Positions 20,000-48,627 of a DNA stretch of 49,659 nt are shown here, piece after piece (positions within the stretch are counted from its first letter, which is position 1; each line of letters opens with the position of its first letter). This DNA comes from a virus: IMG/VR virus record IMGVR_UViG_3300034073_001268, positions 1 to 49,659 of that record, one strand, 5' to 3'. Both the position numbers and the translations under genes were made by a program. Below the pieces are notes generated by a model. It worked only from the letters and a program-made list of their open reading frames with translations, was not told the DNA's origin and ran no database searches.

Positions 20000-20890
20000 A
20001 TGGATGATAATCAAATAGACGAAATTCGAATTCTAATATATAGAAATTTATCTAGAGCAAGCAGAAGATCTCCAAACGATTTTTCAAAAATAGCATATTC
20101 TAATGAAGATATTGTTGAAAAAATTGAGTACAACATAAATAGTCATGGGTATAGATCTATAGACTTTAACAAAAATAATGAAATTTTAGTATTAGGGTGC
20201 TCTCAAACATACGGTTCTGGAATGCCAAATGAATTTACTTGGCCAGAACTTTTTTCTAATTCTATTAATAAAAAGTATTCAAGGTTGGCTGTGCCAGGGG
20301 ATAGTATAGGTGCTCAAGTTTATAAAGCATTTAAATATTTTGAAGAAATAGGTAATCCAGAAATAGTTGTAGGAACATTTCCATTATATAGACTAGAGTT
20401 TGTTTCTATTCCAAATAAATTTTTGGCTTCTATTAGATCTGGAAATACTGAGTTAGAAAGAACAACAATTGGAATAGCACATTTTTATCAAGAAAAACCA
20501 ATTGAATTTTCTAAAATTCCACACGACCCAGAGTTTGTTATTCCAAGAGAATTTTCTATATTTTACAATTTTATGCTAATACAAATGCTTGAACAATATT
20601 GCAAGTCTAATAAAATAAAATTTATTTGGAGTATATATGATAGCAAGGAAATTGAAATATATATGCAATCAGCACCAAATACTTTAAAAAATTATTTAAG
20701 AACCTCAGATGCTTTGTCTGGCTGCCAATGGAATGAAGGTAAGGGCTGTGCAAAAGAATCAAAACACAAATTATTTGATTGGGCTGCAGACTATGATGCT
20801 AAAAAGGATTTGGGACATTGGGGCATACATACTCATAAGCACACGGCAGAATTATTTATTGAAAGATATAGGCAAATACAAAATGATTAA
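20000..20890 (+). CDS. SGNH/GDSL-type hydrolase, 296 aa
   Basis: Block I is ILVLGCSQTYGSGMPNEFTW (residues 62-81), with Ser in GCSQTYG as the likely nucleophile. The C-terminal GHWGIHTHKHTAELF carries a His that fits the block V D-x2-H position. SGNH enzymes in phages usually remove or transfer acyl groups on sugars. No signal peptide, so it acts in the cytoplasm. It is leaderless and coupled through a small peptide to the carbamoyltransferase; the pair suggests modification of a sugar-containing product. Confidence 0.6.
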   Translation: MDDNQIDEIRILIYRNLSRASRRSPNDFSKIAYSNEDIVEKIEYNINSHGYRSIDFNKNNEILVLGCSQTYGSGMPNEFTWPELFSNSINKKYSRLAVPGDSIGAQVYKAFKYFEEIGNPEIVVGTFPLYRLEFVSIPNKFLASIRSGNTELERTTIGIAHFYQEKPIEFSKIPHDPEFVIPREFSIFYNFMLIQMLEQYCKSNKIKFIWSIYDSKEIEIYMQSAPNTLKNYLRTSDALSGCQWNEGKGCAKESKHKLFDWAADYDAKKDLGHWGIHTHKHTAELFIERYRQIQND

Positions 20891-20969
20891 CAATATTAAG
20901 TGGATATATTATAAAATAATTATTTGGTTTAAAAATAGAAAAAGAAAAAAGAAAGACTTTATTTATTAA
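20883..20969 (+). CDS. Possible 28-aa basic membrane peptide
   Basis: MINNIKWIYYKIIIWFKNRK plus a Lys-rich tail starts 8 nt inside the SGNH gene and ends with TAATG, the last A being the first base of the next ATG. The layout suggests it couples translation of the two enzymes. Tentative. Confidence 0.4.
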   Translation: MINNIKWIYYKIIIWFKNRKRKKKDFIY

Positions 20970-22390
20970 TGATAATACTTGGAATAAACGAAACTAGTCA
21001 TGATGCCTCAGTTTCTCTAATTAAAGACGGAGAGATCCTTTTTGCTGGGCATGCAGAAAGATATAGTAAGAAAAAAAATGATTGGTATAACAACACAAAT
21101 ATATATTTAGACGCATTAAAATATGGAAAACCAACACATATAGCATATTATGAAAAACCACAACTAAAGCGATCAAGGCTTTTGTTGCGTGGTGGTGCTG
21201 GAGAGTGGAAACCAACAATGCCATTTGATCTTCCTGTAAAATATTTTAGCCATCATTATTCCCATGCAGCAGCAGGATACTATACAAGTAAGTTTGATGA
21301 TGCAGTAATAGTAGTATTAGATTCAATTGGAGAATATAATACTTCTACGGTGTGGACTGGAGAAGGTTCACAAATAAAACAAGTATATAAAAAGAATTAT
21401 CCATTTAGTTTTGGATTGTTTTATTCTGCATTTACAAAATTAGTTGGACTAAAACCTAACGAAGAAGAATATATTTTTATGGGTATGGCAGCATATGGAG
21501 ATTGGACAAGATATTTTATAAAAGTTAAAGAATACTTTTACAATATTGATAAACAAAAATACAATTTTCATAAAGGCATTTTAGACTGGAATGAAACTAT
21601 TGATGATCAAGCGAAGTTTGATATTGCAGCAGCAGTTCAAAGGGTATATGAAGATAGACTTGTCAACTTTATGGCTATGGCTCAAAAGTTAACTAAAAAA
21701 AGAAACCTTGTTTTTATGGGCGGTTGTGCATTAAATTGTGCAGCCAACACAATGCTCTGGAAAATGTTTGATGATATTTGGATTATGCCAAACCCAGGAG
21801 ATGCTGGATCATCTCTTGGCGCAGCAGCAGCACTGTATGGAAAGCATCTAAATTGGAATACCCCATATCTTGGATATGATCTTGGCGGAGAATACCCAGT
21901 ACAGCAAATCGTGGACGGTATATTAAAAGATGGAATCGTAGCAGTAGCAACAGGCAGAGCAGAATATGGACCAAGGGCTTTAGGAAATAGATCAATTCTC
22001 GCAGATCCAAGAGATCCAAATATTAAAGACAAAGTTAATTTAATTAAACAAAGAGAATTATTTAGACCTTTTGCTCCAGTAGTTATGGAAGAATGTGCAT
22101 CTAAATGGTTTGATATGGATTTTACAAGCCCATACATGCAGTACGCAGTCAAGTGCCTACAACCAGACAAAATACCCTCTGTCGTACATGCTGATGGTAC
22201 CTCAAGGGTTCAAACAGTAAATAGAAACCAGCATCGTGGTTTGTGGAGAGTTTTAAACAAGTTTTACCTTCAAACTGGAGTACCCATACTACTTAATACC
22301 AGTTTAAATATAAAGGGTCAGCCCCTATTAAATGATGAAGATGATATTATTCAATGGGAAAATAAATATAACTTTACAATTATTAGGTAA
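20969..22390 (+). CDS. NodU/TobZ/CmcH-family carbamoyltransferase
   Basis: At 473 aa the chain has the family signatures in order: MIILGINETSHDASVSLI at the N-terminus, HHYSHAAAGYYTS near residue 92, the GGCALNCAAN block, GRAEYGPRALGNRSIL, and LFRPFAPVVM with LNTSLNIKGQP near the end. These enzymes transfer carbamoyl from carbamoyl phosphate to a hydroxyl of a sugar or antibiotic via carbamoyl-AMP. It is slightly shorter than usual (about 550). Phage homologues have been linked to nucleotide or glycan modification; the substrate here is unknown. Confidence 0.8.
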   Translation: MIILGINETSHDASVSLIKDGEILFAGHAERYSKKKNDWYNNTNIYLDALKYGKPTHIAYYEKPQLKRSRLLLRGGAGEWKPTMPFDLPVKYFSHHYSHAAAGYYTSKFDDAVIVVLDSIGEYNTSTVWTGEGSQIKQVYKKNYPFSFGLFYSAFTKLVGLKPNEEEYIFMGMAAYGDWTRYFIKVKEYFYNIDKQKYNFHKGILDWNETIDDQAKFDIAAAVQRVYEDRLVNFMAMAQKLTKKRNLVFMGGCALNCAANTMLWKMFDDIWIMPNPGDAGSSLGAAAALYGKHLNWNTPYLGYDLGGEYPVQQIVDGILKDGIVAVATGRAEYGPRALGNRSILADPRDPNIKDKVNLIKQRELFRPFAPVVMEECASKWFDMDFTSPYMQYAVKCLQPDKIPSVVHADGTSRVQTVNRNQHRGLWRVLNKFYLQTGVPILLNTSLNIKGQPLLNDEDDIIQWENKYNFTIIR

Positions 22391-22410: not shown

Positions 22411-22471
22411 AGTGTGGTTAGACTATGTGTGTCGGGAAACACATTTAGCCTATGTTGCAACACCACACTCC
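22411..22471 (+). ncRNA. Structured 5' leader of katG
   Basis: GAGTGTGG pairs with CCACACTC (8 bp) and encloses ATGTGT/ACACAT. The leader runs about 100 nt from the start site to the ATG, unlike the very short leaders elsewhere here, so a control function is likely. Confidence 0.5.
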
Positions 22472-22508
22472 CCTAGATTTTGTAACACATATAACAGAAA
22501 GAGAACTC

Positions 22509-24682: not shown

Positions 24683-24841
24683 ATGAACGAACTAGAATAT
24701 GAAATTAAAGCAATATTGTTTGAAATTGGTAAAGATTTAAAGGTTCATAAATTAATTGATGGCAACCTAATTGTTGAAATTGATTACGACAAATATACAA
24801 TTGAGATAATGGAACTTTTTGCAAAATATTTTTCTAGTTAG
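24683..24841 (+). CDS. Small acidic protein, 52 aa
   Basis: The ATG sits 4-5 nt after AGGAGG of the tRNA-Thr acceptor stem. The product (MNELEYEIKAILFEIGKDLK) has a helix-strand pattern and no ligands. It ends head-on against the leftward sulfotransferase gene with an 8-nt overlap; this is the main strand switch of the window. Confidence 0.6.
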   Translation: MNELEYEIKAILFEIGKDLKVHKLIDGNLIVEIDYDKYTIEIMELFAKYFSS

Positions 24842-25577
24842 TTGGTAACCAGAATAAAGAGTTGTCTTCGTATATTTCTTTATCAATAGGGAACATATTT
24901 CTAATATATTCTAAATCTTCTTCAGTTAAAGAGTTAAACAAAATTTCTGAAGAATTATTTTTAAAGTATTCTTTGTTTGCATTTTCGATTTTTATGTTTG
25001 ATGATATGCCCAAGTCTTTTAAAATTTTATTTATTAGTAAGTTGTAATCAATTAATTTTAAGTCTTTTTGTCTAATCATTAAATTAACTCTGCGAATTCT
25101 TTTATAAATTTCTTCTGTATTAAACTTTTCATTGTTTTCATATTTGACCATAGCCTCTTGGAGAAGTGACCTGGTCTCGACATCTGGACTCAGCATAAAA
25201 TTTTTAGACTGAAAATCTTTCATATATCCCCACCTTTGTGCCGTATTATATAGTTCATCTTTGCTAATCACAAGTGGCTCAGTATTCATCTTAATTATGT
25301 TCCAGTTATCTTCATCTACTAAACCATTTTTTATTGCAACAGAATGACACATAGCACTAACAAAAAACTCACATGGATCTCTAAAAATAGATATAATATA
25401 TGTTTTATCATCTATCCATGATGGCCAACCAGCATGCTGCCTCATATCTTCTGGAGACTTTACTAGTTCTATTCCATTATCTTTTAGTATGTTTTCTATC
25501 GGACGCAATATGTACTTAGTTAAAAACCTACCGCCAGTTTTTGGAATATGTAAAAAATAAACTTTGTTATATTTCAT
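24834..25577 (-). CDS. Sulfotransferase family protein, 247 aa
   Basis: The N-terminal HIPKTGGRFL (residues 10-19) is the PAPS 5'-phosphate loop and IFRDPCEFFVSAM (near 64-76) the 3'-phosphate motif of the P-loop sulfotransferases. The enzyme should move sulfate from PAPS to a hydroxyl or amine of a carbohydrate or protein. A second member lies at 35146 and a PAPS-forming APS kinase domain at 33827, so the phage seems to supply donor and transferases. Starts overlap with thioredoxin by 4 nt. Confidence 0.75.
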   Translation of the reverse strand: MKYNKVYFLHIPKTGGRFLTKYILRPIENILKDNGIELVKSPEDMRQHAGWPSWIDDKTYIISIFRDPCEFFVSAMCHSVAIKNGLVDEDNWNIIKMNTEPLVISKDELYNTAQRWGYMKDFQSKNFMLSPDVETRSLLQEAMVKYENNEKFNTEEIYKRIRRVNLMIRQKDLKLIDYNLLINKILKDLGISSNIKIENANKEYFKNNSSEILFNSLTEEDLEYIRNMFPIDKEIYEDNSLFWLPTN

Positions 25578-29493: not shown

Positions 29494-29759
29494 AGTTCTT
29501 TACCACCTTCTCTAACTAATTGAACTATAGCACCATTAGCCTCAAGGGCCTTTTTTGTTTTAATCATATAATTAGCAGCACGAATCTTGTCATCATGACT
29601 TAACAGCATAAAAGATTTTTCTGATGCCCTAACAGTAATAAATCCTTCTTGATGTTCTATAATATCCAAACCAAACCCCTTTGGGGCAAGGTGATCTAAT
29701 GATCTAAATGCTCTTCTCATAGCATCTGTATATACTACTCCATTGTTAGAGATTGCCAT
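29490..29759 (-). CDS. Unknown protein, 89 aa
   Basis: Start set at MAISNNGVVYTDAMRRAFRS, preceded by GGGGGC as SD; an ATG-less longer reading overlaps whiB further. The sequence contains ALRR-type helices and EGFITVRASEKSFMLLSHDD. No known motif. It overlaps the end of whiB, indicating co-expression. Confidence 0.55.
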   Translation of the reverse strand: MAISNNGVVYTDAMRRAFRSLDHLAPKGFGLDIIEHQEGFITVRASEKSFMLLSHDDKIRAANYMIKTKKALEANGAIVQLVREGGKEL

Positions 29760-30016
29760 GTAAGCCCCCAATCAGCCTTTGTCTTGTGGTTAGAGAATTC
29801 TTTAGATATTTCTCCATTTTCTAAATATACCCCGCCCCATACGCCCCACTCTTTGCCAGAAATTCCAACAGAAAAACAATCTTTTCTTACTGGACACTTA
29901 GAGCAAAGTAGGTCAACAGCAGGCCTAAGTAATTCATCTTCTTCGTATTTATCAAAAAATACATTTGTGTCGTAGTCTAGACATGCAGCATCATCTTTCC
30001 ACTCATGCTTATTCAT
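29735..30016 (-). CDS. whiB: WhiB-family transcriptional regulator
   Basis: Four cysteines at 12, 38, 41 and 47 (C-x25-C-x2-C-x5-C) bind the [4Fe-4S] cluster, and EWGVWGGVYL is the family's G-V/I-W-G-G turn followed by a basic tail (NHKTKADW). WhiB proteins occur only in actinobacteria and their phages, and act by binding the housekeeping sigma factor and DNA. This is strong evidence for an actinobacterial host. A phage WhiB can redirect host transcription or block superinfection. Confidence 0.92.
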   Translation of the reverse strand: MNKHEWKDDAACLDYDTNVFFDKYEEDELLRPAVDLLCSKCPVRKDCFSVGISGKEWGVWGGVYLENGEISKEFSNHKTKADWGLTWQSLTME

Positions 30017-31005: not shown

Positions 31006-31338
31006 TCATCGTTTATCAGCAATAATTTTTAGAAGTTGTTTAAGAGTAGACCTTTCGTTTGCATCCAACATTTTAACTTGGCTTTGATCAAAAGATTTTT
31101 TATTAATTTTAACAATTGGATTTGCATCTGTCACATCCATATCTATAAAACCTTTTTCCCAAAGTGTCATAGTAACTTCTGAAAAGTAACTGCCGATAGC
31201 ATTGTCTAGTTTGGGGTCAATGTCTTTTAACATTTCTGTTTTTACATACATATTTTCCCCAGTTTCTGGATCTTTACCAGCAAACCTCAACCCTCCAGTT
31301 AAAATTAATTTTTGAAATATTCTTTCTGAATCTCTCAC
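31006..31338 (-). CDS. Unknown soluble protein, 110 aa
   Basis: Helical and charged, MRDSERIFQKLILTGGLRFA onward with DPETGENMYVKTEM and a basic C-terminal helix. It overlaps the nuclease gene by 4 nt. No recognised motif. Confidence 0.6.
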   Translation of the reverse strand: MRDSERIFQKLILTGGLRFAGKDPETGENMYVKTEMLKDIDPKLDNAIGSYFSEVTMTLWEKGFIDMDVTDANPIVKINKKSFDQSQVKMLDANERSTLKQLLKIIADKR

Positions 31339-31742
31339 TTTCCAGACTTCTTTCTTGCTTTTGCTAAAGCATCAAAATCTTTTACCTTGGTATCCCCAAG
31401 ATAGCCCCAGGCATATCCATCATTAATCATATGATCATTGACTGAGACAGTATCCTCATTAACATATATCCATCCAAGTATTCTGCCATACTTTTCTGAA
31501 GAGTCCATTTTTTCAGTTTTAATGATAACTGACTTTGCATCTTTAAGAAACTTTTTTAAATATTCTTTTGACTCAAGACCTAAAACCTTTTCTGCTTTAT
31601 CTGATGTGCGAGACTCAGGGGTATCAATACCAGCCAGCCTTACACGAGATGAAAACAAAATGTCAAATCCTAAATCAATTAAAACGTCAATGGTATCTCC
31701 ATCTACTACGTTTTCTACTTTTCTTACATAATATGTATACAT
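31335..31742 (-). CDS. Thermonuclease (SNase-like) domain protein
   Basis: The SNase order is complete: VVDGDTIDVLID (calcium-binding Asp), VRLAGIDTPES (Arg and Asp), LESKEYLKKFL, MDSSEKYGRILGWIYV (second Arg) and NDGYAWGYLG. It is a single 135-aa OB-fold domain without signal peptide, so it cuts DNA or RNA inside the cell, for example host nucleic acid. SD is AAGGAGG. Confidence 0.9.
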   Translation of the reverse strand: MYTYYVRKVENVVDGDTIDVLIDLGFDILFSSRVRLAGIDTPESRTSDKAEKVLGLESKEYLKKFLKDAKSVIIKTEKMDSSEKYGRILGWIYVNEDTVSVNDHMINDGYAWGYLGDTKVKDFDALAKARKKSGK

Positions 31743-31752
31743 ACAAGCCTCC

Positions 31753-32037
31753 TTAGACCCAATACTTAATTATAGCAGTTATAGCCAGAATTGTCCAGAG
31801 GATATTGAACCAGATTAAGGTTGGTATGGTTTTTACAGTAGAAGACCATATTAACATTAGGCTTGAAACCAGGGCAAAAATATAAAGCCACCACCACTGC
31901 TTGTCAAATAATAGTCCTGGGATAATAATTATTGCTTTGGCGACAAATGCAAAAAACTCAACAGTGTTTGGTTTGTTCCAGTATTCTATTTTCCCCATAG
32001 TTTTAAGAGAATGATACCAGCCTGGTCTTGTTTTCAT
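31753..32037 (-). CDS. Multi-span membrane protein, 94 aa
   Basis: Three hydrophobic stretches (FFAFVAKAIIIIPGLLF, LYIFALVSSLMLIW, LIWFNILWTILAITAI) with Trp-rich loops. The start overlaps the end of the halogenase gene by 4 nt. It could be a membrane partner of the halogenase, but nothing in the sequence proves it. Confidence 0.65.
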   Translation of the reverse strand: MKTRPGWYHSLKTMGKIEYWNKPNTVEFFAFVAKAIIIIPGLLFDKQWWWLYIFALVSSLMLIWSSTVKTIPTLIWFNILWTILAITAIIKYWV

Positions 32038-33578
32038 TTTAAACTTTCTAAAAATTGTCTATGATCCATACACTCTGCTATTTTATAATTTTGATAGTTA
32101 TTGTAATAGTCATACATGTCAACTCCCTTTTTATAGTCAGGAGAGTTTTCTGTGTATGTTTTAGCAACATCTTTATTTATTGTATCGTGTGCAGATCCAA
32201 CAAATATCCAACTGTTTATTGTCCATTCATTACCAGCATCTAAACTATTAGGTAGCCTACTGCCCCACTTATCCATTTTTTCTTTTAAATTTTTTGGTGA
32301 CTTTTCATAAGAGAATTTTTTCCAAAAATCTGTGTCTTTTCTTAATGTTATATAATGAAAATAAATAAAATCAGAAATGCTATTGTTCATTTTTAATATA
32401 TTGTTATTAAATTCTTTTCTTATTTCTTCAGAGTTACCACTTATCCATAGAGGGTTGTCGAATATTTGTGATAATTGTACTATACTTACCCAAATAGATG
32501 TTGCCTCTAATGGTTCAATAAAGTTTGCTGCGAGTCCTATTGCTACACAATTATTTATCCACGGTTCTTCATAGCATCCAGCATTAAATTGAAACCCACC
32601 CTTGTCTTTTCTAGGGTATATTGGCTCATATCCCAGAAATTCTTCTATTTCTTTTATTGCATCTTTTTCAGATATAAGAGATGAATCATATACATACCCG
32701 CAACCGAATCTTGTTTGAAGTGGTATTTTCCACATCCATCCATACTTCATTGCTATTGCCTCTGTATATGGCGGTATTTTATCTTCCATATCAATAAAAA
32801 ATGGAATGGCAGAATCAACAGGAAGAAAGTCTTTATAACTGTTCCATTTGGCATTATATACTTTACCAATAATTAATCTATGAAATCCACTACAGTCAAA
32901 AACAAAATCACATAAAATGTTTTCATTATTTTCTAAAAGTAAACTACTTATATATCCATTTTCACCCAATGAAATATTTTTTATAGTGCCATCTATTAGT
33001 TTTATTCCTCTTTCGGTTCCTATTTCCTTTAGCCTATTTGCTAATTTTGTGGCATTAAAATGTATAGATATGTTGCCTATTTTTTTATAGTCAAAAATAG
33101 GATCTTTTTTAGAAACAAACCCAAAGTCTACCTTATTATTTTCTAAAACAAAAGGAACTTTTTTCTTTTCTGAAATTTTTTCCATGAAGTCTATCTCATT
33201 TACGCTATTATTTAAAGACAGGCTTGCTACCATTAGTGGACTATTTGATAAATATCTATCACTTAAAGCATCAAAACCAAGTTGTTTATCAGTTGTAGAA
33301 AAACCGTGGTAATAAAATCTTCCATCATTATTCCAGTTTGTAAACTTAATTCCGTTTTTTATTGTTGCATCACAATTTTTGATTAAGTCTGACAATGGTA
33401 TATCTAAATGATTTAAAAAGTCTGTAAGGTATGGCGTAGAGCCTTCTCCTGCACCCAAAATTCCTATCTCTGTTGATTCTATAACTGTTATGTCTAGGTC
33501 TGGATATGATCGCTGCGCTTTAAGCGCTGTAAGCCAACCAGCAGTTCCTCCGCCAACCACAACTATTTTTTTTGTCAT
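32034..33578 (-). CDS. Flavin-dependent tryptophan-halogenase family protein
   Basis: At 514 aa it is full length. It has an FAD-binding GGGTAGW (residues 9-15), the catalytic Lys in ATIKNGIKF (K74, equivalent to Lys79 of PrnA), YGWMWKIPLQ holding the W-x-W-x-I-P motif, and NFIEPLEATSIWV. With FADH2, O2 and halide such enzymes chlorinate or brominate indoles, phenols or other substrates. No flavin reductase is seen nearby. Phage halogenases are known, for example in cyanophages. Substrate unknown. Confidence 0.87.
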   Translation of the reverse strand: MTKKIVVVGGGTAGWLTALKAQRSYPDLDITVIESTEIGILGAGEGSTPYLTDFLNHLDIPLSDLIKNCDATIKNGIKFTNWNNDGRFYYHGFSTTDKQLGFDALSDRYLSNSPLMVASLSLNNSVNEIDFMEKISEKKKVPFVLENNKVDFGFVSKKDPIFDYKKIGNISIHFNATKLANRLKEIGTERGIKLIDGTIKNISLGENGYISSLLLENNENILCDFVFDCSGFHRLIIGKVYNAKWNSYKDFLPVDSAIPFFIDMEDKIPPYTEAIAMKYGWMWKIPLQTRFGCGYVYDSSLISEKDAIKEIEEFLGYEPIYPRKDKGGFQFNAGCYEEPWINNCVAIGLAANFIEPLEATSIWVSIVQLSQIFDNPLWISGNSEEIRKEFNNNILKMNNSISDFIYFHYITLRKDTDFWKKFSYEKSPKNLKEKMDKWGSRLPNSLDAGNEWTINSWIFVGSAHDTINKDVAKTYTENSPDYKKGVDMYDYYNNYQNYKIAECMDHRQFLESLK

Positions 33579-33781
33579 TACTTTCTACCCCACTGTATTT
33601 TATTCCATCCACGCTCATGAAAATAATAAAGAATAGTCTTAGTAATAACTTCTAAACTTGCTATGCTTGCAGCAACTACTGGCTTTTTAGTAATAAACCA
33701 GGATATAACGAATGTATCTGCAGTACCAACTACTCTCCAGGTGATTGCTTTTACTGCAGATCTAGATTTTGTTACGCTCAT
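33578..33781 (-). CDS. DUF2061 membrane protein, 67 aa
   Basis: SRSAVKAITWRVVGTADTFV with two membrane helices, then FHERGWNKIQWGRK, is the DUF2061 signature (K-x2-TWR and H-E-R-x-W). In bacteria it is sometimes fused to or near APS kinase, and here it lies 45 nt from such a domain. Start set at ATG 33781 behind GGAG. A second member is at 37250-37468. Confidence 0.8.
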   Translation of the reverse strand: MSVTKSRSAVKAITWRVVGTADTFVISWFITKKPVVAASIASLEVITKTILYYFHERGWNKIQWGRK

Positions 33782-33826
33782 GATGGCCACTCCATATTAC
33801 TTGGTTTAGTGAGCCAGTCCCACAAC

Positions 33827-34585
33827 TTAGATACCCATTTCTTTACGCTTTTGCGTAGCCGATATAGCATGAATGTCTGCCCCCAAATCTACTTGTTCAA
33901 TCTTGTATCCTACATCACGGCCATAAACAATGTTTGTGATGTTTGGTAGTCTTAGAATTAATGTATTTTTGTATGGATTATCTTTCTTTATATACCCCGA
34001 AACCTCATCATACATCAATGGATCCTTTTCTGATGTATTATAAGTGTTGCGTACACCAACTAATACCTGATCAGTTCTTTTATGTGCCTCATTCTTAAGA
34101 GCCTGATGACCCTCATGCCAAGGCTGATATCTGCCAAGTTGCAGGGTAGTAGGAGCAGACCAATCAAATAGACCACAAGCCTGCAATATTGTGTCTACTT
34201 CTTGCTCTACAGTGTACCCATCAAGAATTCTGATATGAAAGTTTATAGGATCTCTCCAAAGTTTGTTAGTGTCCTCAAACCTTCCTTCTTTTATTCTGTC
34301 AACCCACACAATAACATCAGCAAAGCCAAATGCACTCCTTGTTTCATCTGTTGGACAAACAAAGTCTACAATTACTGGAGCAACATTTTGTTTAGCAATT
34401 AGCCTTGCCATTTCTCCCATACGCCTTGCTTGTTCGATTCTATCGGCGGGAGTGAAAAAAAGATCTGAATTAACGGTAGACCTAACCTCGTCTGCATTAA
34501 GATGAATAGCGTTGATGCGTTCTTTAAGTGCAACTGCTAATGCTGTTTTGCCAGACCCAGGAAGTCCTATAATTTGTATAATCAT
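33827..34585 (-). CDS. Fusion of APS-kinase-like domain and HxGH nucleotidyltransferase, 252 aa
   Basis: Residues 1-130 resemble CysC: P-loop GLPGSGKTAL, HLNADEVRSTVNSDLFFTPA, DRIEQARRMGEMARL and VDFVCPTDETRSAF. Residues 145-252 are a cytidylyltransferase-like fold: LGRYQPWHEGHQALKNEAHK (H-x-G-H) and a final ISATQKRKEM, as in NadM-type enzymes. CysC makes PAPS from APS; the second domain joins a nucleotide to a phosphate and might form APS or a dinucleotide. The pairing with two sulfotransferases supports PAPS supply. Confidence 0.75.
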   Translation of the reverse strand: MIIQIIGLPGSGKTALAVALKERINAIHLNADEVRSTVNSDLFFTPADRIEQARRMGEMARLIAKQNVAPVIVDFVCPTDETRSAFGFADVIVWVDRIKEGRFEDTNKLWRDPINFHIRILDGYTVEQEVDTILQACGLFDWSAPTTLQLGRYQPWHEGHQALKNEAHKRTDQVLVGVRNTYNTSEKDPLMYDEVSGYIKKDNPYKNTLILRLPNITNIVYGRDVGYKIEQVDLGADIHAISATQKRKEMGI

Positions 34586-35145
34586 CTTGTACCCAACTCT
34601 TCGTTTGGCATTATGTCAATAAGCAAATGAACTCTATCTATGTCACTATTATTTTCTACAAGATGTGGTCTTGAATTATTAATCTCCCAGCACTCTCCAG
34701 CCTGCATACTTATTTTTTCATTTCCTACCCCAAAAAATACATTATCTGAGGTTACTATTGGTATGTGATTTCGTCTAGAAAACATAAGATAATCTCCAGA
34801 GTCAAAATGTATTGATATGTCTTGTCTTGCTTTTAACTTGATTAGCAACACCATTCCCCTAGTACCGTTATGAATTTCCTCTAAATTTTTTATAATAGGC
34901 TCAAGGATCTCAATTAATTTTTCATCATTTGATTCTTTCTTTACCAAAAACAAATCACCGCCCTTCCAAAGAAGGTTGGCCCTATAAACAAAATATGAAA
35001 CTGTATCTTTGTGAACATCGTAGTTGTCTTGTCTTGATGTGTCTAATAGCCACTCGCTAGAAAAATTTGAAATATGATTTTTTATTGCTTCAACATCATA
35101 GGTTGCATGCTTTTTAAAATTAAAGTCTTCGCTAGTTTTTCTCAT
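34582..35145 (-). CDS. Aspartyl/asparaginyl beta-hydroxylase-like oxygenase, 187 aa
   Basis: The core reads ISIHFDSGDYLMFSRRNHIP, then AGECWEINNSRPHLVENNSD and RVHLLIDI. His-x-Asp supplies two iron ligands and PHLVEN the third, with Arg (RRNH and DRVHL) for 2-oxoglutarate. This is the cupin-like family that hydroxylates Asp, Asn or Arg residues or free amino acids. It overlaps the fusion gene by 4 nt and abuts the sulfotransferase, so the three are co-expressed. Confidence 0.75.
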   Translation of the reverse strand: MRKTSEDFNFKKHATYDVEAIKNHISNFSSEWLLDTSRQDNYDVHKDTVSYFVYRANLLWKGGDLFLVKKESNDEKLIEILEPIIKNLEEIHNGTRGMVLLIKLKARQDISIHFDSGDYLMFSRRNHIPIVTSDNVFFGVGNEKISMQAGECWEINNSRPHLVENNSDIDRVHLLIDIMPNEELGTR

Positions 35146-35742
35146 TTACGGCCTCATCCAATCATCAAAGTTTGTACTATATTTAAACAAGTCAAAGTCA
35201 ACCTTGTATAGTATTTTAACTATATCTATTATATCATTAGTGTAGTCATTTAGATAGGAGTCTATATCATAATTGCCCAAATTATATCTACCCAACTTCC
35301 AGTTAAAATCAGACTCAAGTTCTTTTAAATTTTCAAACTTATATACTTTATTAACCTGTATCTCATTATTTTCAGCAATGTAAAAAGATTGAGGGTAGTG
35401 AAGCAGAGGGGTTGTTGGCGATATTATATTTTTTAATATATTTTCTAGATACTCTTTAAAAGATATTTCTGTTTTATTAGTCTTGTTGTATTGCTTATAG
35501 CAACTATATGTTCTTGCATATGGGTTTCTAACAACTGAGAAAGAGAATATGTTGTGATCTATTGTATTTGCACTCTCTAAATATGAGTATGGGTCATGAT
35601 GTCTTGGCCATGCTCTATTCCAGTTGTCTAGATTGTTATCATAGAGTATTTTAGAAATAGAAGATCCAGCAGTTTTTGGTATATGCACAAACAATACACC
35701 AGAATATTCCTTGTTGTTAATTAGCATGTTGGTTAATTTCAC
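35146..35742 (-). CDS. Sulfotransferase family protein, 198 aa
   Basis: VLFVHIPKTAGSSISKILYD carries the PAPS 5'-phosphate loop and FSVVRNPYARTYSCYKQYNK the 3'-phosphate R-x-P-x3-x2-S motif. It resembles carbohydrate sulfotransferases (Sulfotransfer_2 type). Directly adjoins the hydroxylase gene and overlaps the LLM gene by 26 nt. Confidence 0.8.
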   Translation of the reverse strand: MKLTNMLINNKEYSGVLFVHIPKTAGSSISKILYDNNLDNWNRAWPRHHDPYSYLESANTIDHNIFSFSVVRNPYARTYSCYKQYNKTNKTEISFKEYLENILKNIISPTTPLLHYPQSFYIAENNEIQVNKVYKFENLKELESDFNWKLGRYNLGNYDIDSYLNDYTNDIIDIVKILYKVDFDLFKYSTNFDDWMRP

Positions 35743-36556
35743 TGTTTATTTCTTTAACAAGTTTATTAACTCTAATATGATTTTCTTTATTCCAAAAATC
35801 ATCCATATATATATTGTTAGTTATTATTAATAAATCAGTTATTTTTTCATCTTTAAGTTTAAGAATTTGCTCCTTTACCGTTTCGTGGTCTCCGATTATT
35901 GAATAACGTATATACCCTGGATTAACAGAAAGAACCTTTTCATTAAACTTTTCAAGTTCATCGTTTGATTCTAATATAGTAACAACAGCAGCAACCATTA
36001 TGTTTTGAATTCCATAAAATCTATCAATATTGTCTCTATACGAATCTATACTGCTTAGAGATGTTCCATTAAATATTCTTACAGTATCCAAAGCATACTC
36101 ATGAAAACCGCTAAATACCATAGGTGGTTTTACTGATGATGGACAATACATGTTATACATCTTTACAAATTCCCTTAAAAACTTAATTCTTTTTTCTATT
36201 GTGTCTATGGAATCTGATTTTCCAAAAATATCAAACTCCAGGTCTGGCTCATCTTCTCTGTTGTGAAAATCTCCAGCAACCCAATTAAACATAAGTCTGT
36301 CTTTGTCTACTTGGCTATGTCCAATTGTCATCATAGAGCAATACTGTGGACTTAGATGATATGGCCTTAGCGCTATCATATATTTTAATTTATGCCCTGG
36401 GATAATTGCAGCAGCAGACTTTATAAAATAATCTGCCTGAGCAGAATGAAATGTTAGTAGAACTGATTTATATCCAGAATCTTCTAGGCTGTAGGAAAGA
36501 TGCTTCAATTCTTCAACATTACAATGTTGATCTCTTAGCATATAGTGCAGCCTCAT
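35717..36556 (-). CDS. Luciferase-like (LLM) flavin monooxygenase, 279 aa
   Basis: YMIALRPYHLSPQYCSMMTI and DKDRLMFNWVAGDFHNREDE align with the same block of the 28196 enzyme, so the two are paralogues. PPMVFSGFHEYALD and ITDLLIITNN resemble later barrel strands. A reduced flavin cofactor is expected. It sits in the halogenase-sulfotransferase cluster, so it may act on the same compound. Confidence 0.75.
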   Translation of the reverse strand: MRLHYMLRDQHCNVEELKHLSYSLEDSGYKSVLLTFHSAQADYFIKSAAAIIPGHKLKYMIALRPYHLSPQYCSMMTIGHSQVDKDRLMFNWVAGDFHNREDEPDLEFDIFGKSDSIDTIEKRIKFLREFVKMYNMYCPSSVKPPMVFSGFHEYALDTVRIFNGTSLSSIDSYRDNIDRFYGIQNIMVAAVVTILESNDELEKFNEKVLSVNPGYIRYSIIGDHETVKEQILKLKDEKITDLLIITNNIYMDDFWNKENHIRVNKLVKEINSEINQHAN

Positions 36557-36786
36557 TACTGGTTTATTTTTTCTCGCTCATCAACAATAGAAATAGCAAA
36601 CTTCATCATGCTATCATAGCCAACAGCGTTATCCATAATTTTATTATAATGGTGTCCGCAGAAAAATAATTCTCCAGAAATTCCAGAGACTTTAACTAGA
36701 GCCTCAGCGCCACACTTATCACAGCGATCCTGGGGGCCAAGAGTCCAAGTCTTTTCTTCTTCCTTTGACTTTAACATACTAAACAT
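36556..36786 (-). CDS. Actinobacterial zinc-ribbon protein (DUF7455-like), 76 aa
   Basis: RCDKCGAEALVKVSGISGEL followed by FFCGHHYNKI gives C-x2-C...C-x2-H-H, the small zinc ribbon typical of actinobacteria. Start set at MFSMLKSKEEEKTW (36786) just after the upstream stop, with GAAGGG as SD. Probably regulatory. Confidence 0.7.
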   Translation of the reverse strand: MFSMLKSKEEEKTWTLGPQDRCDKCGAEALVKVSGISGELFFCGHHYNKIMDNAVGYDSMMKFAISIVDEREKINQ

Positions 36787-36787
36787 A

Positions 36788-36973
36788 TTATACCCTTCGA
36801 TTGTCAGTTTTATAGAACCCAGAGCCATTGAATGTGACTCCTATATTAGAGTATACACGAACTAAGCCTTTATTGCAAGTTTCACACCTATACCCTGGGT
36901 CCTCATCGGACATAGATCTAACTTTTGTATATCTTGTATCACAAGACACACAGTCATATTCATATGATGGCAT
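36788..36973 (-). CDS. FmdB-type zinc-ribbon protein, 61 aa
   Basis: MPSYEYDCVSCDTRYTKVRS, then RCETCNKG and GVTFNGSGFYKTDNR is the standard FmdB/CxxC_CxxC_SSSS pattern. Function not established. Start overlaps the upstream stop as TAATG. Confidence 0.85.
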   Translation of the reverse strand: MPSYEYDCVSCDTRYTKVRSMSDEDPGYRCETCNKGLVRVYSNIGVTFNGSGFYKTDNRRV

Positions 36974-38179: not shown

Positions 38180-38971
38180 TTATATTTTTACTAATGCTGG
38201 GTTTAAAGGAGATCTTGCTCCCGCTATTGCCTTCTCTATTTCAGAGCAAACAAAGTTAAACTCTTCTTCAAAGATTTCAGGAGATCTATCTTCGCCCATT
38301 TTAGGCTCTTTTCCTTCTGCAATCATTGCATCTTTCAGAGTTTTTTCAATGTCATAGTTTAGAACTGTGCATGTAAAATGCTTCATGACATATCCATCTT
38401 TGTCTATTAAATACTTTTCATAGTTTCCGCCCATTTGAACTCCATCATAGAATCCAATGTTTAACCATGGGGACTTAAATTTTCCATGAACATTTCCATC
38501 TTCTAGAGAATCTCTCATAGATCTCAATTTCTCCATCTGAGATGAAATCTCTGCATACAACTCATGTGGTGGTAGTGTTGGTTGACCCAATCCATTAGTT
38601 CCAGTTGTAAGACCATTACCTAAAACCTCATTCAACAACTCATGTGGAACAGAAGAAACCATCTCTGAATACTTAAATGTTGTATTATAAACCTCTTCTC
38701 CATAAGCCTTTGAATCTAAACCGCAGGTAATTCCTTGTGACCACTTGCCCTTAGTAACTCCTGGACCACAATAGTCATTTGTTGGGACAGCAATAATTTC
38801 AAATTCTTCATTGTTATACTTATCTTGAAGCATTTGTAGGACTTCCAACTGATTTGCGTTACCGCAACCAACTGTAGTATTGGCAACTAGTGTAACTTTG
38901 CCTTTATATTGCTGTAGGTGATTTGGGGTACCTTCCGCAGAAGATAACTGGATGTCATATATTGGTTTCAT
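38180..38971 (-). CDS. Glutathione-peroxidase-like protein, 263 aa
   Basis: GKVTLVANTTVGCGNANQLE, LQDKYNNEEFEIIAVPTNDY and YEKYLIDKDGYVMKHF follow the GPx fold: a peroxidatic Cys after the first strand (GCG), the N-x-Y/F region, and the late F/Y-E-K-F/Y-L-I-D strand. The middle holds a long insertion (residues 75-165). It should reduce peroxides with thioredoxin, which the phage also encodes at 25574. Start set at ATG 38971 because TATAAT lies 6 nt upstream. Confidence 0.7.
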   Translation of the reverse strand: MKPIYDIQLSSAEGTPNHLQQYKGKVTLVANTTVGCGNANQLEVLQMLQDKYNNEEFEIIAVPTNDYCGPGVTKGKWSQGITCGLDSKAYGEEVYNTTFKYSEMVSSVPHELLNEVLGNGLTTGTNGLGQPTLPPHELYAEISSQMEKLRSMRDSLEDGNVHGKFKSPWLNIGFYDGVQMGGNYEKYLIDKDGYVMKHFTCTVLNYDIEKTLKDAMIAEGKEPKMGEDRSPEIFEEEFNFVCSEIEKAIAGARSPLNPALVKI

Positions 38972-39007
38972 GTCTATATTATAACACATTTTTAGCCATG
39001 TTTTAAG

Positions 39008-39039: not shown

Positions 39040-39912
39040 CTAACTACGAAGGTAAGACGATGATCCAATCAAAATTTTTGCAAGAGACGATAAGTACTCT
39101 CCAAATGATTTTGATGAATTTGTGCTTACGTATGAGGCTGATGCAACAGCAGTAGCAACAGACGAACCGTACGCAACTGTTGGAGCACCGTTATATTTAG
39201 TGATTTTTACTCCAGATCTAGCGACCATATCAAGTCCTGGACCTTGGTTGGTTGCTGCCTCAAGTTGAGTTTCAGTAGCCAATGCTCCGACTCCAATAAC
39301 TCCATCGACACATGAAGGGAATCCCACAACATCTTTTCTACGATCATTTCCTGTTGCAACAAACACTGGAACATTGTTTGCATTTAGTAAAGATACAGCA
39401 TTAATTGTTTCTGTATCTTTTGTGCATCGTGACAGGTTGTCGGCAGAGACTGAAGACTGGCTAATTGATAAAGCGTCAATGCTATATTTAGATGCATTAT
39501 TTGATACCCAATCAATTGCTGCTGTTAGGGCTCTAACATCTCCCCTTGAATTTCCAATGCTTGTAACATCATTAAATCTAATAAATACAATCTTGATGTT
39601 AGGATCTACTGTAAGTGCAGACTTAACCATGCTGTCACCGTGATATGTTCTATTATTAATAGATTTTGGCCATGGGGCAGATGCTGCGCCCTTACCCTCC
39701 ATAAACAATTCGCCGTTTGGACATGACATATTTCTAGATGCAATTGTTGACTTTACTGTTGTAAAGCAAACCTCGTGAATAATTTGAGGGAAATTGTCAG
39801 AGTTAATGGCGGTATCAATAATTGCCAAAACCTTTTGATCATCTGCCTGTGAAGGCTGAATTACAGTAACTACAAGTAGTGCCGATAGTATTGCTATTAG
39901 TGTCTTTTTCAT
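39040..39912 (-). CDS. Exported subtilisin-like serine protease, 290 aa
   Basis: MKKTLIAILSALLVVTVIQP is a signal peptide with cleavage expected after PSQA. The S8 triad is visible: Asp in VLAIIDTAINSD, His in TYHGDSMVKSAL, and Ser in YGSSVATAVASASYV, with the oxyanion Asn in VATGND. There is no long propeptide. Outside the cell it could process surface proteins of the host or phage. Start set at the ATG behind AAAGGATAA. A phage-encoded exported protease is uncommon. Confidence 0.85.
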   Translation of the reverse strand: MKKTLIAILSALLVVTVIQPSQADDQKVLAIIDTAINSDNFPQIIHEVCFTTVKSTIASRNMSCPNGELFMEGKGAASAPWPKSINNRTYHGDSMVKSALTVDPNIKIVFIRFNDVTSIGNSRGDVRALTAAIDWVSNNASKYSIDALSISQSSVSADNLSRCTKDTETINAVSLLNANNVPVFVATGNDRRKDVVGFPSCVDGVIGVGALATETQLEAATNQGPGLDMVARSGVKITKYNGAPTVAYGSSVATAVASASYVSTNSSKSFGEYLSSLAKILIGSSSYLRS

Positions 39913-39938
39913 TTGTTTATCCTTTGTTTGTTGTTTGT

Positions 39939-40121
39939 TTATTCTTTTATTTTTACTACTAATTGACATGGATCTCCGCCGTCTTCCCATTCCTGCTGCT
40001 CTTCATCAGTCATGTACGGATCTCCTTCATGCGTATTGCAGAACGGTTCTGTTATCCATCCCCGTTCAATTCCATTGTTTAACCATATGGAAAACTCGTC
40101 GTAATCTTGTTCTTCGATCAT
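39939..40121 (-). CDS. Conserved small acidic phage protein, 60 aa, leaderless
   Basis: The middle PFCNTHEGDPYMTDEEQQEW is a conserved pattern in actinophage small proteins; Cys, His and acidic residues could bind metal. Its promoter lies in the end of the proteasome-like gene and the -10 is 6 nt from the ATG. Confidence 0.7.
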   Translation of the reverse strand: MIEEQDYDEFSIWLNNGIERGWITEPFCNTHEGDPYMTDEEQQEWEDGGDPCQLVVKIKE

Positions 40122-40127
40122 ATATTA

Positions 40128-40156
40128 AGTATACCCTTAAGCAGTCACAATGTCAA
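40128..40156 (-). promoter_or_regulatory. Promoter of gene 40121
   Basis: Minus strand TTGACA, 17 bp, TATACT, 6 nt to ATG; -35 and spacer lie inside the end of gene 40137-40661. Confidence 0.75.
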
Positions 40157-40661
40157 CTGGGCCTGTGCAAGATGGGCTAAATTTTATTGCTGCGTTTACT
40201 GCCTGCATAACCCTATTTCTTGCATTTTTTTGTTTATCTGTTGCAAATAAAACCCCATACGCATATTCTGATCCAGACCCCATTGCAATATATGGCAGTG
40301 TATATTTAGATAAAGACATATCTACAGCGCTATGCTCATATATTTCACCACGAATTCCAATAATCAAACCTAGATCTCCATCTTTGCTAGTATCTACCCA
40401 AAACTCATTATAAAATTCCCTTAGTTCTTTGATAAATCTAGTTTGCATAAACTTGTCTGTATCCTTTATATTTGGTGCAGTTGGTTTAAAATTGTAACGA
40501 ATTCTTTCTCCATCTAATCCACCAGCATATCCAATAAGATAAGGACCTATTTTCCAAACCTTGGGTGCTTCAAGAGCCAGAATAATGTTATCATCTGATG
40601 CACCACGATCTCCAGCCATATAAACTTTGCCTTCGTGTTTTAATGCAGCAATACAGGTCAT
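40137..40661 (-). CDS. Proteasome-beta/HslV-like Ntn hydrolase, 174 aa
   Basis: After Met removal the chain starts TCIAALKHEGKVYMAGDRGA. Counting from that Thr, the catalytic positions are exactly T1, D17 and K33 (APKVWKIG), as in proteasome beta subunits and HslV. Later GSGSEYAYGVLFA matches the S-G-x2-xx-A helix start of the fold. At 174 aa it is the HslV size. No ATPase partner is visible in the window. It may replace or modify host proteolysis, or process phage proteins. Confidence 0.78.
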   Translation of the reverse strand: MTCIAALKHEGKVYMAGDRGASDDNIILALEAPKVWKIGPYLIGYAGGLDGERIRYNFKPTAPNIKDTDKFMQTRFIKELREFYNEFWVDTSKDGDLGLIIGIRGEIYEHSAVDMSLSKYTLPYIAMGSGSEYAYGVLFATDKQKNARNRVMQAVNAAIKFSPSCTGPVDIVTA

Positions 40662-46984: not shown

Positions 46985-48046
46985 TTATCTGTCAACTCCT
47001 GGTATCTTCCAGTCTAGGTCTTCTCTAGTAACTGGAGCATTATTTTTAATTCCAGACATGTGTTGATATCCATCAATTTTGTCATAATCTGGATTATATT
47101 CTGTCCATTTAAGATCTATGCCACTTTTTCTACAGTACTCTTGGACAGTTTCTAGTAGTATTCCGCCATATTTTCCCTCTAGTTTTCCTGAAAACAACAT
47201 GTTTAATTTTAGCATAGCCCTTTTTGAGTGCTCCCAGTGATCATTTTTTTTATCATCTGCCCATGGTCTTGCAGTATTATATCTGCTTAATTTTTCTCCT
47301 GGATACTGTCTAGATAAATGGTGATATGCAAAAATTTTTGATGTAGCAAACATTCTCCAGCCTCTACCCCAAGACTGCAAAGAAACATATGGCTCTTCCC
47401 CATTAAAGTTCATTTCTGGATCTAATGGAACTTCTTCTACATAAGATTTATCTGCAAAGCACCATGTAAAGTGAACCCAATAATTTTCATGAACATCATC
47501 ATCTTCTGGCGGAACATGCCCAATAGGAAACCAATATCCTGGAATAAAGTCAGACTTTGACTGAGTTCTTGGATCCCATCCAGTTATTGATGGGTGATAC
47601 AAATTTGTTTTTACTTTGTTCTTATATTTAACTGACCAATCTTCGTTATATTCAAAGTCTGGTGGACACAATGTTAAAACTGCTTTGTTTGTTATCGATT
47701 TATTTTTTGCCTTTTCGTACTCAGACAAACATACAATGTCCCAATCTTCTTCAAACCTTGTATGTCCACAAATAAATAAAACATAGTCATATTCATAATG
47801 AGATGGTAAATTTCTTGTTGTTAAGTCTCTAGCCCAAAGAATCCCCCTGTACTTTGATAAATCAAATCTTCGATACAGCATTTGATTTTCTGGAACAAAA
47901 CTTAAATCTGAATAAAATTCTGGGTAGTGCTCTTCAACAATAGAGAATAGAAGGCCTTCTTTGTTGCTTGCTTTTTTATAACAGTCTAAAACTGTCCCCA
48001 AAAGATCTCCCTCTTTGTATGAAATTATTGATACTAAAATTTTCAT
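46985..48046 (-). CDS. GlcNAc-type glycosyltransferase family protein, 353 aa
   Basis: MKILVSIISYKEGDLLGTVL is the GT-A start; YRRFDLSKYRGILWARDLTT and DYVLFICGHTRFEEDWD hold the nucleotide-sugar and metal-binding region (CGHTRF replaces the D-x-H). Later SWGRGWRMFATSKIFAYHHL resembles the acceptor part of the Skp1-type GlcNAc transferases. It would add a sugar to a phage or host protein or to DNA. Start set at ATG 48046, overlapping the resolvase stop. Confidence 0.7.
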   Translation of the reverse strand: MKILVSIISYKEGDLLGTVLDCYKKASNKEGLLFSIVEEHYPEFYSDLSFVPENQMLYRRFDLSKYRGILWARDLTTRNLPSHYEYDYVLFICGHTRFEEDWDIVCLSEYEKAKNKSITNKAVLTLCPPDFEYNEDWSVKYKNKVKTNLYHPSITGWDPRTQSKSDFIPGYWFPIGHVPPEDDDVHENYWVHFTWCFADKSYVEEVPLDPEMNFNGEEPYVSLQSWGRGWRMFATSKIFAYHHLSRQYPGEKLSRYNTARPWADDKKNDHWEHSKRAMLKLNMLFSGKLEGKYGGILLETVQEYCRKSGIDLKWTEYNPDYDKIDGYQHMSGIKNNAPVTREDLDWKIPGVDR

Positions 48047-48627
48047 ATGGCCTTGCCCCAATTATTTATAGCCCAGTGCCCAATTCCGCAAGCATCAGCA
48101 ACATCGTTATCATCTATATTTCTATCATATATTGTATTGATAAATCTAATTGTTCTTTCTTTTCTTAAGTTTCTTTCATGCCCCTTATACCAAGATAAGG
48201 ACTTGTTTGGATTTTGAGATCTAATAATTAACTGTTCCTCTTTTGATATTTTTTTATTTCCAATATAGTTTTGCCAAGTTATTGGGGCTACTTTTCCTAT
48301 CGTAGTGGTTCCAGTTTGACCTGCCGATCCAAGGATTGCCCCCTGAACTAGGGCTAAGTCTGCAGCAGTTTTTGGACTGTTCATAAAGACAGTATGCTCA
48401 ATTACGATTGCTTCAAACCCGCCACAATAATCAAAAAACGCCTTAGTTTTTTTTCCAGCATCTACAACCTTTTCATAAATGTCGCTTCCTTCAAATTTAA
48501 TTTTACCTACCCTTCCTAATGTTTTTTGTTGGGTATCAAATAAAGCAAATGCAAAACTATTTGTGCTGGCATCAATAGAGCATATGGTTTTGGGTAACAC
48601 ATTCATTCCCCATTTATTTTTTGTCAT
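48043..48627 (-). CDS. RuvC-like Holliday-junction resolvase
   Basis: The RNase-H-fold acid residues are in SIDASTNSFAFALFD (first Asp), IVIEHTVFMNSPKTAADLAL (Glu) and IDDNDVADACGIGHWA (last Asp pair). At 194 aa it has the usual RuvC length. It resolves branched DNA before packaging, fitting the terminase neighbourhood. SD AAGGATAA. Confidence 0.8.
   Translation of the reverse strand: MTKNKWGMNVLPKTICSIDASTNSFAFALFDTQQKTLGRVGKIKFEGSDIYEKVVDAGKKTKAFFDYCGGFEAIVIEHTVFMNSPKTAADLALVQGAILGSAGQTGTTTIGKVAPITWQNYIGNKKISKEEQLIIRSQNPNKSLSWYKGHERNLRKERTIRFINTIYDRNIDDNDVADACGIGHWAINNWGKAI

What the first reader, a model, noticed from the sequence alone, without database searches (positions are those of the whole stretch)
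31753..36556. Halogenase-sulfation-oxygenase cluster: possible phage tailoring pathway
Flavin halogenase, APS-kinase fusion, Asp/Asn hydroxylase-like enzyme, sulfotransferase and luciferase-like monooxygenase are packed on one strand with overlaps. A second sulfotransferase (24834), second LLM (28196), carbamoyltransferase and SGNH enzyme (20000-22390) and glycosyltransferase (46985) lie nearby. These are classic tailoring enzymes of glycans and natural products. No scaffold-making enzyme is present, so they may modify a host molecule, a surface glycan or a virion component.
Basis: inference. Interest (0 to 1): 0.72.

Follow-up and report, generated by a model that had tools for sequence, protein, structure and literature searches.

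The report
Phage halogenase with conserved membrane partner
A freshwater phage, probably of actinobacteria, carries a swappable block of chemical-decoration genes whose stable core is a halogen-adding enzyme paired with a tiny membrane protein found only in uncultured phages, which suggests that these viruses halogenate something at the membrane or surface of the cell they infect.

Summary
In detail: a tightly packed minus-strand run encodes an intact flavin halogenase, an APS-kinase-like/nucleotidyltransferase fusion, an Asp-hydroxylase-like 2OG oxygenase, a sulfotransferase and a weak SsuD-like LLM protein. In related uncultured phages this protein and a halogenase travel together: at the same locus 36 have both, 1 has only the membrane protein, 31 have neither; on whole contigs 23 of 23 carriers also encode a halogenase. 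It sits beside halogenases only 30-39% alike, in two gene orders, including relatives of cyanophage VirX1. No homologue was found in annotated phages or cellular genomes. Oxygenase and sulfotransferase form a second sub-cassette (26/26), APS-kinase and DUF2061 a third (51/51). Genes evolve under purifying selection; one near-identical phage has the DUF2061-halogenase-membrane block replaced by a divergent allele. So this is a recombining modular cassette, not shown to be one pathway; the outlying enzymes vary separately. Phage halogenases are known; the membrane-coupled pair appears new. Best reading: halogenation of an aromatic target at the host envelope. Substrate unknown. 'No scaffold enzyme' cannot be judged: the window is about 40% of a ~115-kb genome.

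The parts
31753..32037 (-). 94-aa three-helix membrane protein, halogenase partner
   Evidence: 4-bp overlap with halogenase stop; 24-row alignment, 70-100% identical; helices 22-44, 49-64, 72-93 in the model, mean pLDDT 70; purifying selection, dN/dS 0.06-0.09; no homologue in phage records or GTDB contigs
32034..33578 (-). flavin-dependent halogenase (PF04820), 514 aa
   Evidence: tree
33578..33790 (-). DUF2061 membrane protein
   Evidence: PF09834 1.6e-22; follows the APS-kinase fusion in 77 of 82 loci where its downstream side is held
33827..34585 (-). APS-kinase-like domain fused to NMNAT/cytidylyltransferase-like domain
34582..35145 (-). Asp/Asn-hydroxylase-like 2OG-Fe(II) oxygenase
   Evidence: PF05118 5e-14; H-x-D...H...R near-invariant in 35 relatives
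35146..35742 (-). PAPS-dependent sulfotransferase (Sulfotransfer_2-like)
   Evidence: PF03567 8.9e-8, phrog_3347 1.6e-16; HIPKTAGS and R72...S80 conserved
35717..36556 (-). LLM-like flavoprotein, distant SsuD relative (optional cassette member)
   Evidence: 7jv3 E 1.3e-4; PF00296 only E 0.11
31335..31742 (-). staphylococcal-nuclease-like protein: downstream edge of the variable locus
   Evidence: sequence; used as right anchor
36556..36828 (-). conserved small zinc-finger-like protein: upstream edge of the variable locus
   Evidence: used as left anchor
29735..30016 (-). WhiB-like regulator (host clue: Actinobacteriota)
   Evidence: PF02467 1.8e-11; WhiB as actinophage indicator, PMC10202952
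28196..29083 (-). second LLM-like protein (varies separately)
   Evidence: PF00296 4.4e-4, below cutoff
24834..25577 (-). second sulfotransferase-like protein (varies separately)
   Evidence: phrog_3347 1.5e-4
20969..22390 (+). NodU-like carbamoyltransferase (separate module)
   Evidence: PF16861 1.1e-53, phrog_1601 1.4e-108
20000..20890 (+). SGNH-like protein beside the carbamoyltransferase
   Evidence: motif only, no Pfam match; next to the carbamoyltransferase in 14 of 21 loci
46985..48061 (-). PF11397 GlcNAc-type glycosyltransferase
   Evidence: 5.7e-20

Best explanation
The run is a recombining cassette of tailoring enzymes carried by freshwater phages, probably of actinobacteria. Its conserved core is a flavin halogenase acting with a 94-aa three-helix membrane protein. 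During infection host reductases would supply FADH2; the halogenase would form hypohalous acid and pass it by the active-site lysine to an electron-rich aromatic group. The membrane partner would hold the enzyme at, or move substrate, product or halide across, the cytoplasmic membrane, so that the target is halogenated at or exported through the host envelope. The hydroxylase and sulfotransferase are a second, linked sub-cassette that oxidises and sulfates an acceptor, with PAPS topped up by the APS-kinase-like protein. Net effect: chemical remodelling of an envelope or secreted molecule, for instance to exclude competing phages. Shown: gene identity, intact catalytic motifs, the halogenase-membrane-protein pairing across distant halogenases, modular co-occurrence, purifying selection. 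Inferred: membrane coupling, aromatic envelope target, shared acceptor, benefit.
For: Halogenase plus membrane protein at the same locus: 36 both, 1 membrane protein only, 31 neither, 0 halogenase only. Whole contigs: 23/23 with the membrane protein have a halogenase; in 22 contigs found through TerL or APSK, 5 both / 2 halogenase only / 0 membrane protein only / 15 neither, p 0.0008. The membrane protein is 70-100% identical while its partner halogenases fall to 30-39%; they lie in separated parts of a 108-row tree, in orders HAL-TM and TM-HAL, including L220 and L224 on the VirX1 side. It has no homologue outside uncultured phages. Sulfotransferase always with hydroxylase (26/26) and with the halogenase pair 25/26. 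dN/dS 0.05-0.27 for cassette genes with measurable dS; in L028 the DUF2061-HAL-TM block has dS 1.1-1.8 against about 0.3-0.5 for most neighbours, i.e. it was exchanged as a block.
Against: No substrate, product or localisation is known. The membrane protein has no recognised family: SemiSWEET-like fold matches are weak and profile comparison finds no homology. In L213, L225 and L210 the membrane protein has no halogenase beside it (for L225 one lies about 27 kb away), so it may have a broader role. Two contigs have a halogenase without it. In L005 the membrane protein was replaced without the halogenase. Loci were partly collected with these genes as queries.
Confidence: 0.4

Rival explanations
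1. The locus is a hypervariable site where unrelated accessory genes accumulate; neighbours share a site but not a pathway. The halogenase pair, the APS-kinase/DUF2061 pair and the hydroxylase/sulfotransferase pair each do a different job.
For: 14 distinct presence/absence patterns at one site; APS-kinase/DUF2061 alone in 14 loci, empty in 8. APS-kinase relatives occur in phages with no tailoring genes nearby. Sulfotransferase-halogenase association on whole contigs not significant (p 0.14).
Against: Within the site the pairs are far from independent: sulfotransferase with halogenase 25/26; hydroxylase-picked loci keep the whole set (16/17).
Confidence: 0.3
2. The enzymes modify phage virion proteins, most likely tail fibres: Trp/Tyr halogenation, Asp/Pro hydroxylation, GlcNAc transfer and sulfation as decorations that tune adsorption.
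For: Relative G018 has at least six PF13640 2OG oxygenases right after fibre genes; halogenases of S-RIM44, P-SSM2 and DSL-LC01 lie by structural, tail-fibre or collagen-like genes; HTVC008M has a 2OG oxygenase and halogenase beside terminase and tail genes; PF11397 glycosyltransferase in the window; collagen repeats in 13/40 contigs.
Against: A membrane partner is not expected for cytoplasmic virion assembly; the window cassette lies by terminase, lysin and WhiB, not by fibres; collagen repeats also occur without a halogenase (G001, G006).
Confidence: 0.2
3. Sulfur and oxidative-stress support: SsuD-like LLM proteins free sulfite from sulfonates, the APS-kinase-like protein and sulfotransferases handle sulfate, KatG and GPX remove peroxide.
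For: SsuD-like matches; KatG and GPX in the window; freshwater phages are reported to carry ROS defence and PAPS reductase genes (PMC6802176).
Against: Halogenase and hydroxylase have no place in it; no sulfite or PAPS reductase was seen in the window proteins scanned; the LLM proteins are short and weakly conserved.
Confidence: 0.08

Closest known systems
VirX1, flavin halogenase of cyanophage Syn10 (PDB 6qgm; PMC8407142)
   Same: Phage-encoded PF04820 enzyme; FAD motif, lysine, WxWxIP and glutamate family features; matched at 2.2e-47
   Different: Different clade, about 29% identical; no membrane-protein partner; sits beside a second halogenase in Syn10
Pelagibacter phage HTVC008M halogenase (NC_020484)
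   Same: Closest annotated relative, 38% identical; basal to the window clade
   Different: Paired with a phytanoyl-CoA-dioxygenase-like 2OG oxygenase and terminase; no membrane partner
Actinomycetia phage DSL-LC01 halogenase (Dishui Lake; PMC10611076)
   Same: Freshwater, WhiB-bearing phage with halogenase
   Different: 30% identical, followed by a glycosyltransferase, after collagen-like genes
Free-tryptophan halogenases PrnA, RebH, PyrH
   Same: Fold family and catalytic residues
   Different: Alignment stops near residue 445; the C-terminal ~70 residues do not align; free tryptophan not shown as substrate
APS kinase / PAPS synthetase
   Same: N half matches by sequence and fold
   Different: C half is NMNAT/cytidylyltransferase-like, not ATP sulfurylase; family widespread without sulfotransferases

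Membership tests
Flavin-dependent halogenases (PF04820) | GxGxxG flavin site, active-site lysine, WxWxIP motif, active-site glutamate | tested here: met
   K74, W281, P286 and E355 invariant in 16 phage halogenases; PF04820 3.8e-99
Free-tryptophan halogenases | C-terminal tryptophan-anchoring region | tested here: inconclusive
   Most PDB alignments end near residue 445; pocket not modelled
VirX1-type cyanophage halogenases | Falls in the VirX1 clade | tested here: not met
   Window clade groups with HTVC008M, away from L397/L398; L220 and L224 do fall on the VirX1 side
SemiSWEET / PQ-loop transporters (for the 94-aa protein) | Sequence-profile homology and PQ motif | tested here: not met
   hhalign probability 0.4% against 11 cyanobacterial SemiSWEETs; no Pfam match; PG instead of PQ
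SemiSWEET / PQ-loop transporters (for the 94-aa protein) | Three-helix SemiSWEET fold | tested here: inconclusive
   Foldseek prob 0.13-0.15; VIA Z 5.3, tied with unrelated helical proteins; model pLDDT 70
APS kinase | P-loop, DR..RR and CPT....R substrate loops, kinase fold | tested here: met
   activity and substrate not tested
PAPS synthetase (kinase + ATP sulfurylase) | ATP sulfurylase domain | tested here: not met
   C half matches PF01467/phrog_395 with GRYQPWHEGH
Sulfotransferase (PF03567) | 5'-PSB and 3'-PB PAPS motifs | tested here: met
   HIPKTAGS and R72/S80 near-invariant in 27
Asp/Asn (peptidyl) hydroxylases | Iron and 2OG ligands | tested here: met
   H113, D115, H161, R171 near-invariant in 35; peptide versus free amino-acid substrate not testable
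Alkanesulfonate monooxygenase SsuD | Full-length match and active-site residues | tested here: inconclusive
   Only residues 14-103 match; 279 aa against 404; few invariant residues

The most novel reading that the evidence does not exclude
The 94-aa protein is a dedicated membrane partner that viral halogenases of separate lineages have acquired more than once, making a membrane-coupled halogenation device used to alter the host envelope or export a halogenated aromatic, for example to shut out competing phages.
Probability: 0.3. Interest if true: 0.78.

Novelty: new variant of a known kind. Interest (0 to 1): 0.55.

Why it matters
Viral halogenases are common in aquatic phages (20 of 153 cyanophages in PMC10452541), and in what I read none had a known natural substrate or partner. 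A tiny membrane protein that follows distant halogenases from phage to phage gives a concrete handle on where and on what they act, and makes the question testable by co-expression of two adjacent genes. It would also add halogenation, beside hydroxylation and sulfation, to the chemistry that freshwater phages bring into bacterial cells.

Tried and rejected
SemiSWEET/MPC homology for the 94-aa protein: suggested by eye and by weak fold hits, not supported at sequence level; DUF2061 as its relative: no. Cellular origin of the cassette: 80 cellular halogenase loci (at most 35% identical), none with a window neighbour homologue. DNA-level relatives in annotated phages: none. Collagen repeats as a halogenase companion: present in halogenase-negative contigs too. 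PF11397 glycosyltransferase as a cassette member: 15/40 contigs without pattern. PAPS synthetase reading of the fusion: rejected, C half is NMNAT/cytidylyltransferase-like. Literature on phage halogenase + sulfotransferase in freshwater: no paper found; phage virion halogenation: nothing relevant.
Full report
OBSERVATION. The window is a 49,659-base linear virus record. The reported stretch holds a minus-strand run of overlapping genes, in order of transcription: LLM1 (36556-35717), ST1 (35742-35146), AspOH (35145-34582), APSK fusion (34585-33827), DUF2061 (33790-33578), halogenase HAL (33578-32034), a 94-aa membrane protein TM (32037-31753), then a nuclease-like gene. Gaps are -26, 0, -4, +36, -1, -4 and +10 bases, so the genes are probably co-translated. 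The longest open frame (516 codons) far exceeds shuffled sequence (maximum 175 in 200 shuffles). Family matches: HAL PF04820 3.8e-99; APSK PF01583 2.7e-14; AspOH PF05118 5e-14; ST1 PF03567 9e-8; DUF2061 1.6e-22. Catalytic residues are intact and conserved in HAL, AspOH and ST1.

HOST. A WhiB-like gene (PF02467 1.8e-11), described as an actinophage indicator (PMC10202952), points to an actinobacterial host; the freshwater setting is inferred from the Dishui Lake relative and that literature. Related contigs reach 110-123 kb, so the window is about 40% of the genome and statements about absent genes are weak.

CORE PAIR. I collected relatives of HAL, AspOH, LLM1, APSK, TM and TerL from IMG/VR, giving 171 non-redundant loci. 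In 68 of them both edges of the variable site could be read. HAL and TM were both present in 36, TM alone in 1, neither in 31, HAL alone in none. On 40 whole contigs all 23 with TM have a halogenase; two have a halogenase without TM; 15 have neither. Restricting to 22 contigs found through TerL or APSK gives 5/0/2/15 (both / TM only / halogenase only / neither), Fisher p 0.0008. A few of those 22 contigs had also been hit by the HAL or TM searches, so the set is not perfectly neutral.

SEVERAL HALOGENASE LINEAGES. A 108-sequence tree (short search, SH-aLRT only) places TM-adjacent halogenases in (i) the window clade, order HAL-TM; (ii) its sister clade, mostly order TM-HAL (L217, L223, L228, L167, L404; L093 in the other order); (iii) L220 and L224, inside the clade that also holds VirX1 of Syn10; L218 is a convergent, uncertain case on a long branch. 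Clades i and ii may share one ancestral pairing with an order change, so starred branches force at least two independent pairings. TM stays 70-82% identical to the window's copy across these partners while the halogenases fall to 30-39%. In L213, L217, L225 and L228 TM sits between primase and SSB-like genes (my reading of the ORFs); in L213 and L225 no halogenase is adjacent, but L225's contig has one about 27 kb away. So TM can stand alone locally, and a broader role is not excluded.

WHAT TM IS. TM has no Pfam match even at E 10, no homologue in 50,697 phage records, and none confirmed in 84,980 genomes (152 pattern hits, none a relative). AlphaFold2 gives three helices plus an N-terminal amphipathic one at pLDDT 70. 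Fold search puts SemiSWEETs among weak hits (prob 0.15; Z 5.3), but profile-profile comparison with 11 SemiSWEETs gives 0.4% probability. I treat it as a new small membrane family; dN/dS 0.06-0.09 shows it is a real, constrained gene.

OTHER SUB-CASSETTES. At the same site ST1 is present in 26 loci, always with AspOH, and 25 times with HAL+TM; DUF2061 is present in 51, always with APSK; LLM1 in 16, always with APSK. ST1 and DUF2061 were never used as search queries. Loci found by AspOH alone keep ST1 and HAL+TM in 16 of 17 and APSK in 17 of 17 window-type cases. APSK is far more widespread (at least 588 viral contigs) and occurs in Stenotrophomonas, Clavibacter and Xanthomonas phages without tailoring neighbours, so it is not a marker of sulfation. 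Its N half is APS-kinase-like by sequence and fold; its C half is NMNAT/cytidylyltransferase-like. The carbamoyltransferase/SGNH pair, ST2, LLM2 and GT46985 vary separately.

EVOLUTION. Between near-identical phages, divergence jumps inside the cassette. Against L028 most flanks are 90-97% identical, but DUF2061 is 58, HAL 80, TM 76 and LLM1 81, with dS 1.1-1.8 for the DUF2061-HAL-TM block against about 0.3-0.5 for most neighbours (CHAP and LLM1 are also raised). dN/dS stays at 0.05-0.27 where dS can be measured. The block is exchanged between phages by recombination while remaining functional; in L005 TM alone was exchanged.

MECHANISM. From family knowledge, the halogenase needs FADH2 from a host reductase, oxygen and halide, and halogenates electron-rich aromatics through the lysine-guided hypohalous species. 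Constant pairing with a membrane protein suggests that enzyme, substrate, product or halide is handled at the membrane. Hence the best reading is halogenation of an envelope-associated or exported aromatic, with AspOH/ST1 modifying the same or a parallel acceptor. Main rivals are unrelated genes sharing a hot spot, and decoration of virion proteins. The last is encouraged by relative G018, where at least six 2OG oxygenases and a DUF6065 gene lie directly after fibre genes, and by halogenases near fibre-type genes in S-RIM44, P-SSM2 and DSL-LC01.

NOVELTY. Phage halogenases are known (VirX1, PMC8407142; 20 of 153 cyanophages, PMC10452541; DSL-LC01, PMC10611076). I found no description of a membrane partner or of this cassette. 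Cellular halogenases found are at most 35% identical and none carries these neighbours, so the cassette is not a recent capture from the genomes searched. I rate it a new variant of a known kind.

Noticed in passing
window 22452-24599 (+): Full-length KatG catalase-peroxidase (PF00141, two stretches). Among 50,697 phage records the only matches look like bacterial contamination, yet 10 non-redundant related viral loci carry it.
   Followed up: partly
window 38180-38989 (-): Glutathione-peroxidase-like protein (PF00255 4e-10); with KatG it fits the ROS-defence theme reported for freshwater phages (PMC6802176).
   Followed up: partly
L443 6638-12733 (contig G018, 26.6-32.7 kb): Six PF13640 2OG oxygenases and a DUF6065 protein directly downstream of tail-fibre genes in a related phage: a dense hydroxylation cluster.
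   Followed up: partly
window 40137-40661 (-): Protein starting MTCIAALKHEGKVYMAGDRGASDD resembles an HslV/proteasome-type Ntn hydrolase; conserved in relatives next to a subtilase-like secreted protein (39040-39990).
   Followed up: no
window 33827-34585 (-): APS-kinase/nucleotidyltransferase fusion is very widespread in viral contigs (588+ hits) and nearly always followed by a DUF2061 membrane protein; the function of this pair is unknown.
   Followed up: partly
G015, G016, G028, G030 (contigs of L121, L228, L229, L104): Contigs with two halogenases of different clades; only one of the two sits beside the membrane protein.
   Followed up: partly
L443 7345-8118: phrog_7084 family protein (unknown function) beside the fibre/2OG cluster in G018; a similar-looking 'IPQWYKD' protein lies just upstream of the halogenase in L224.
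   Followed up: no
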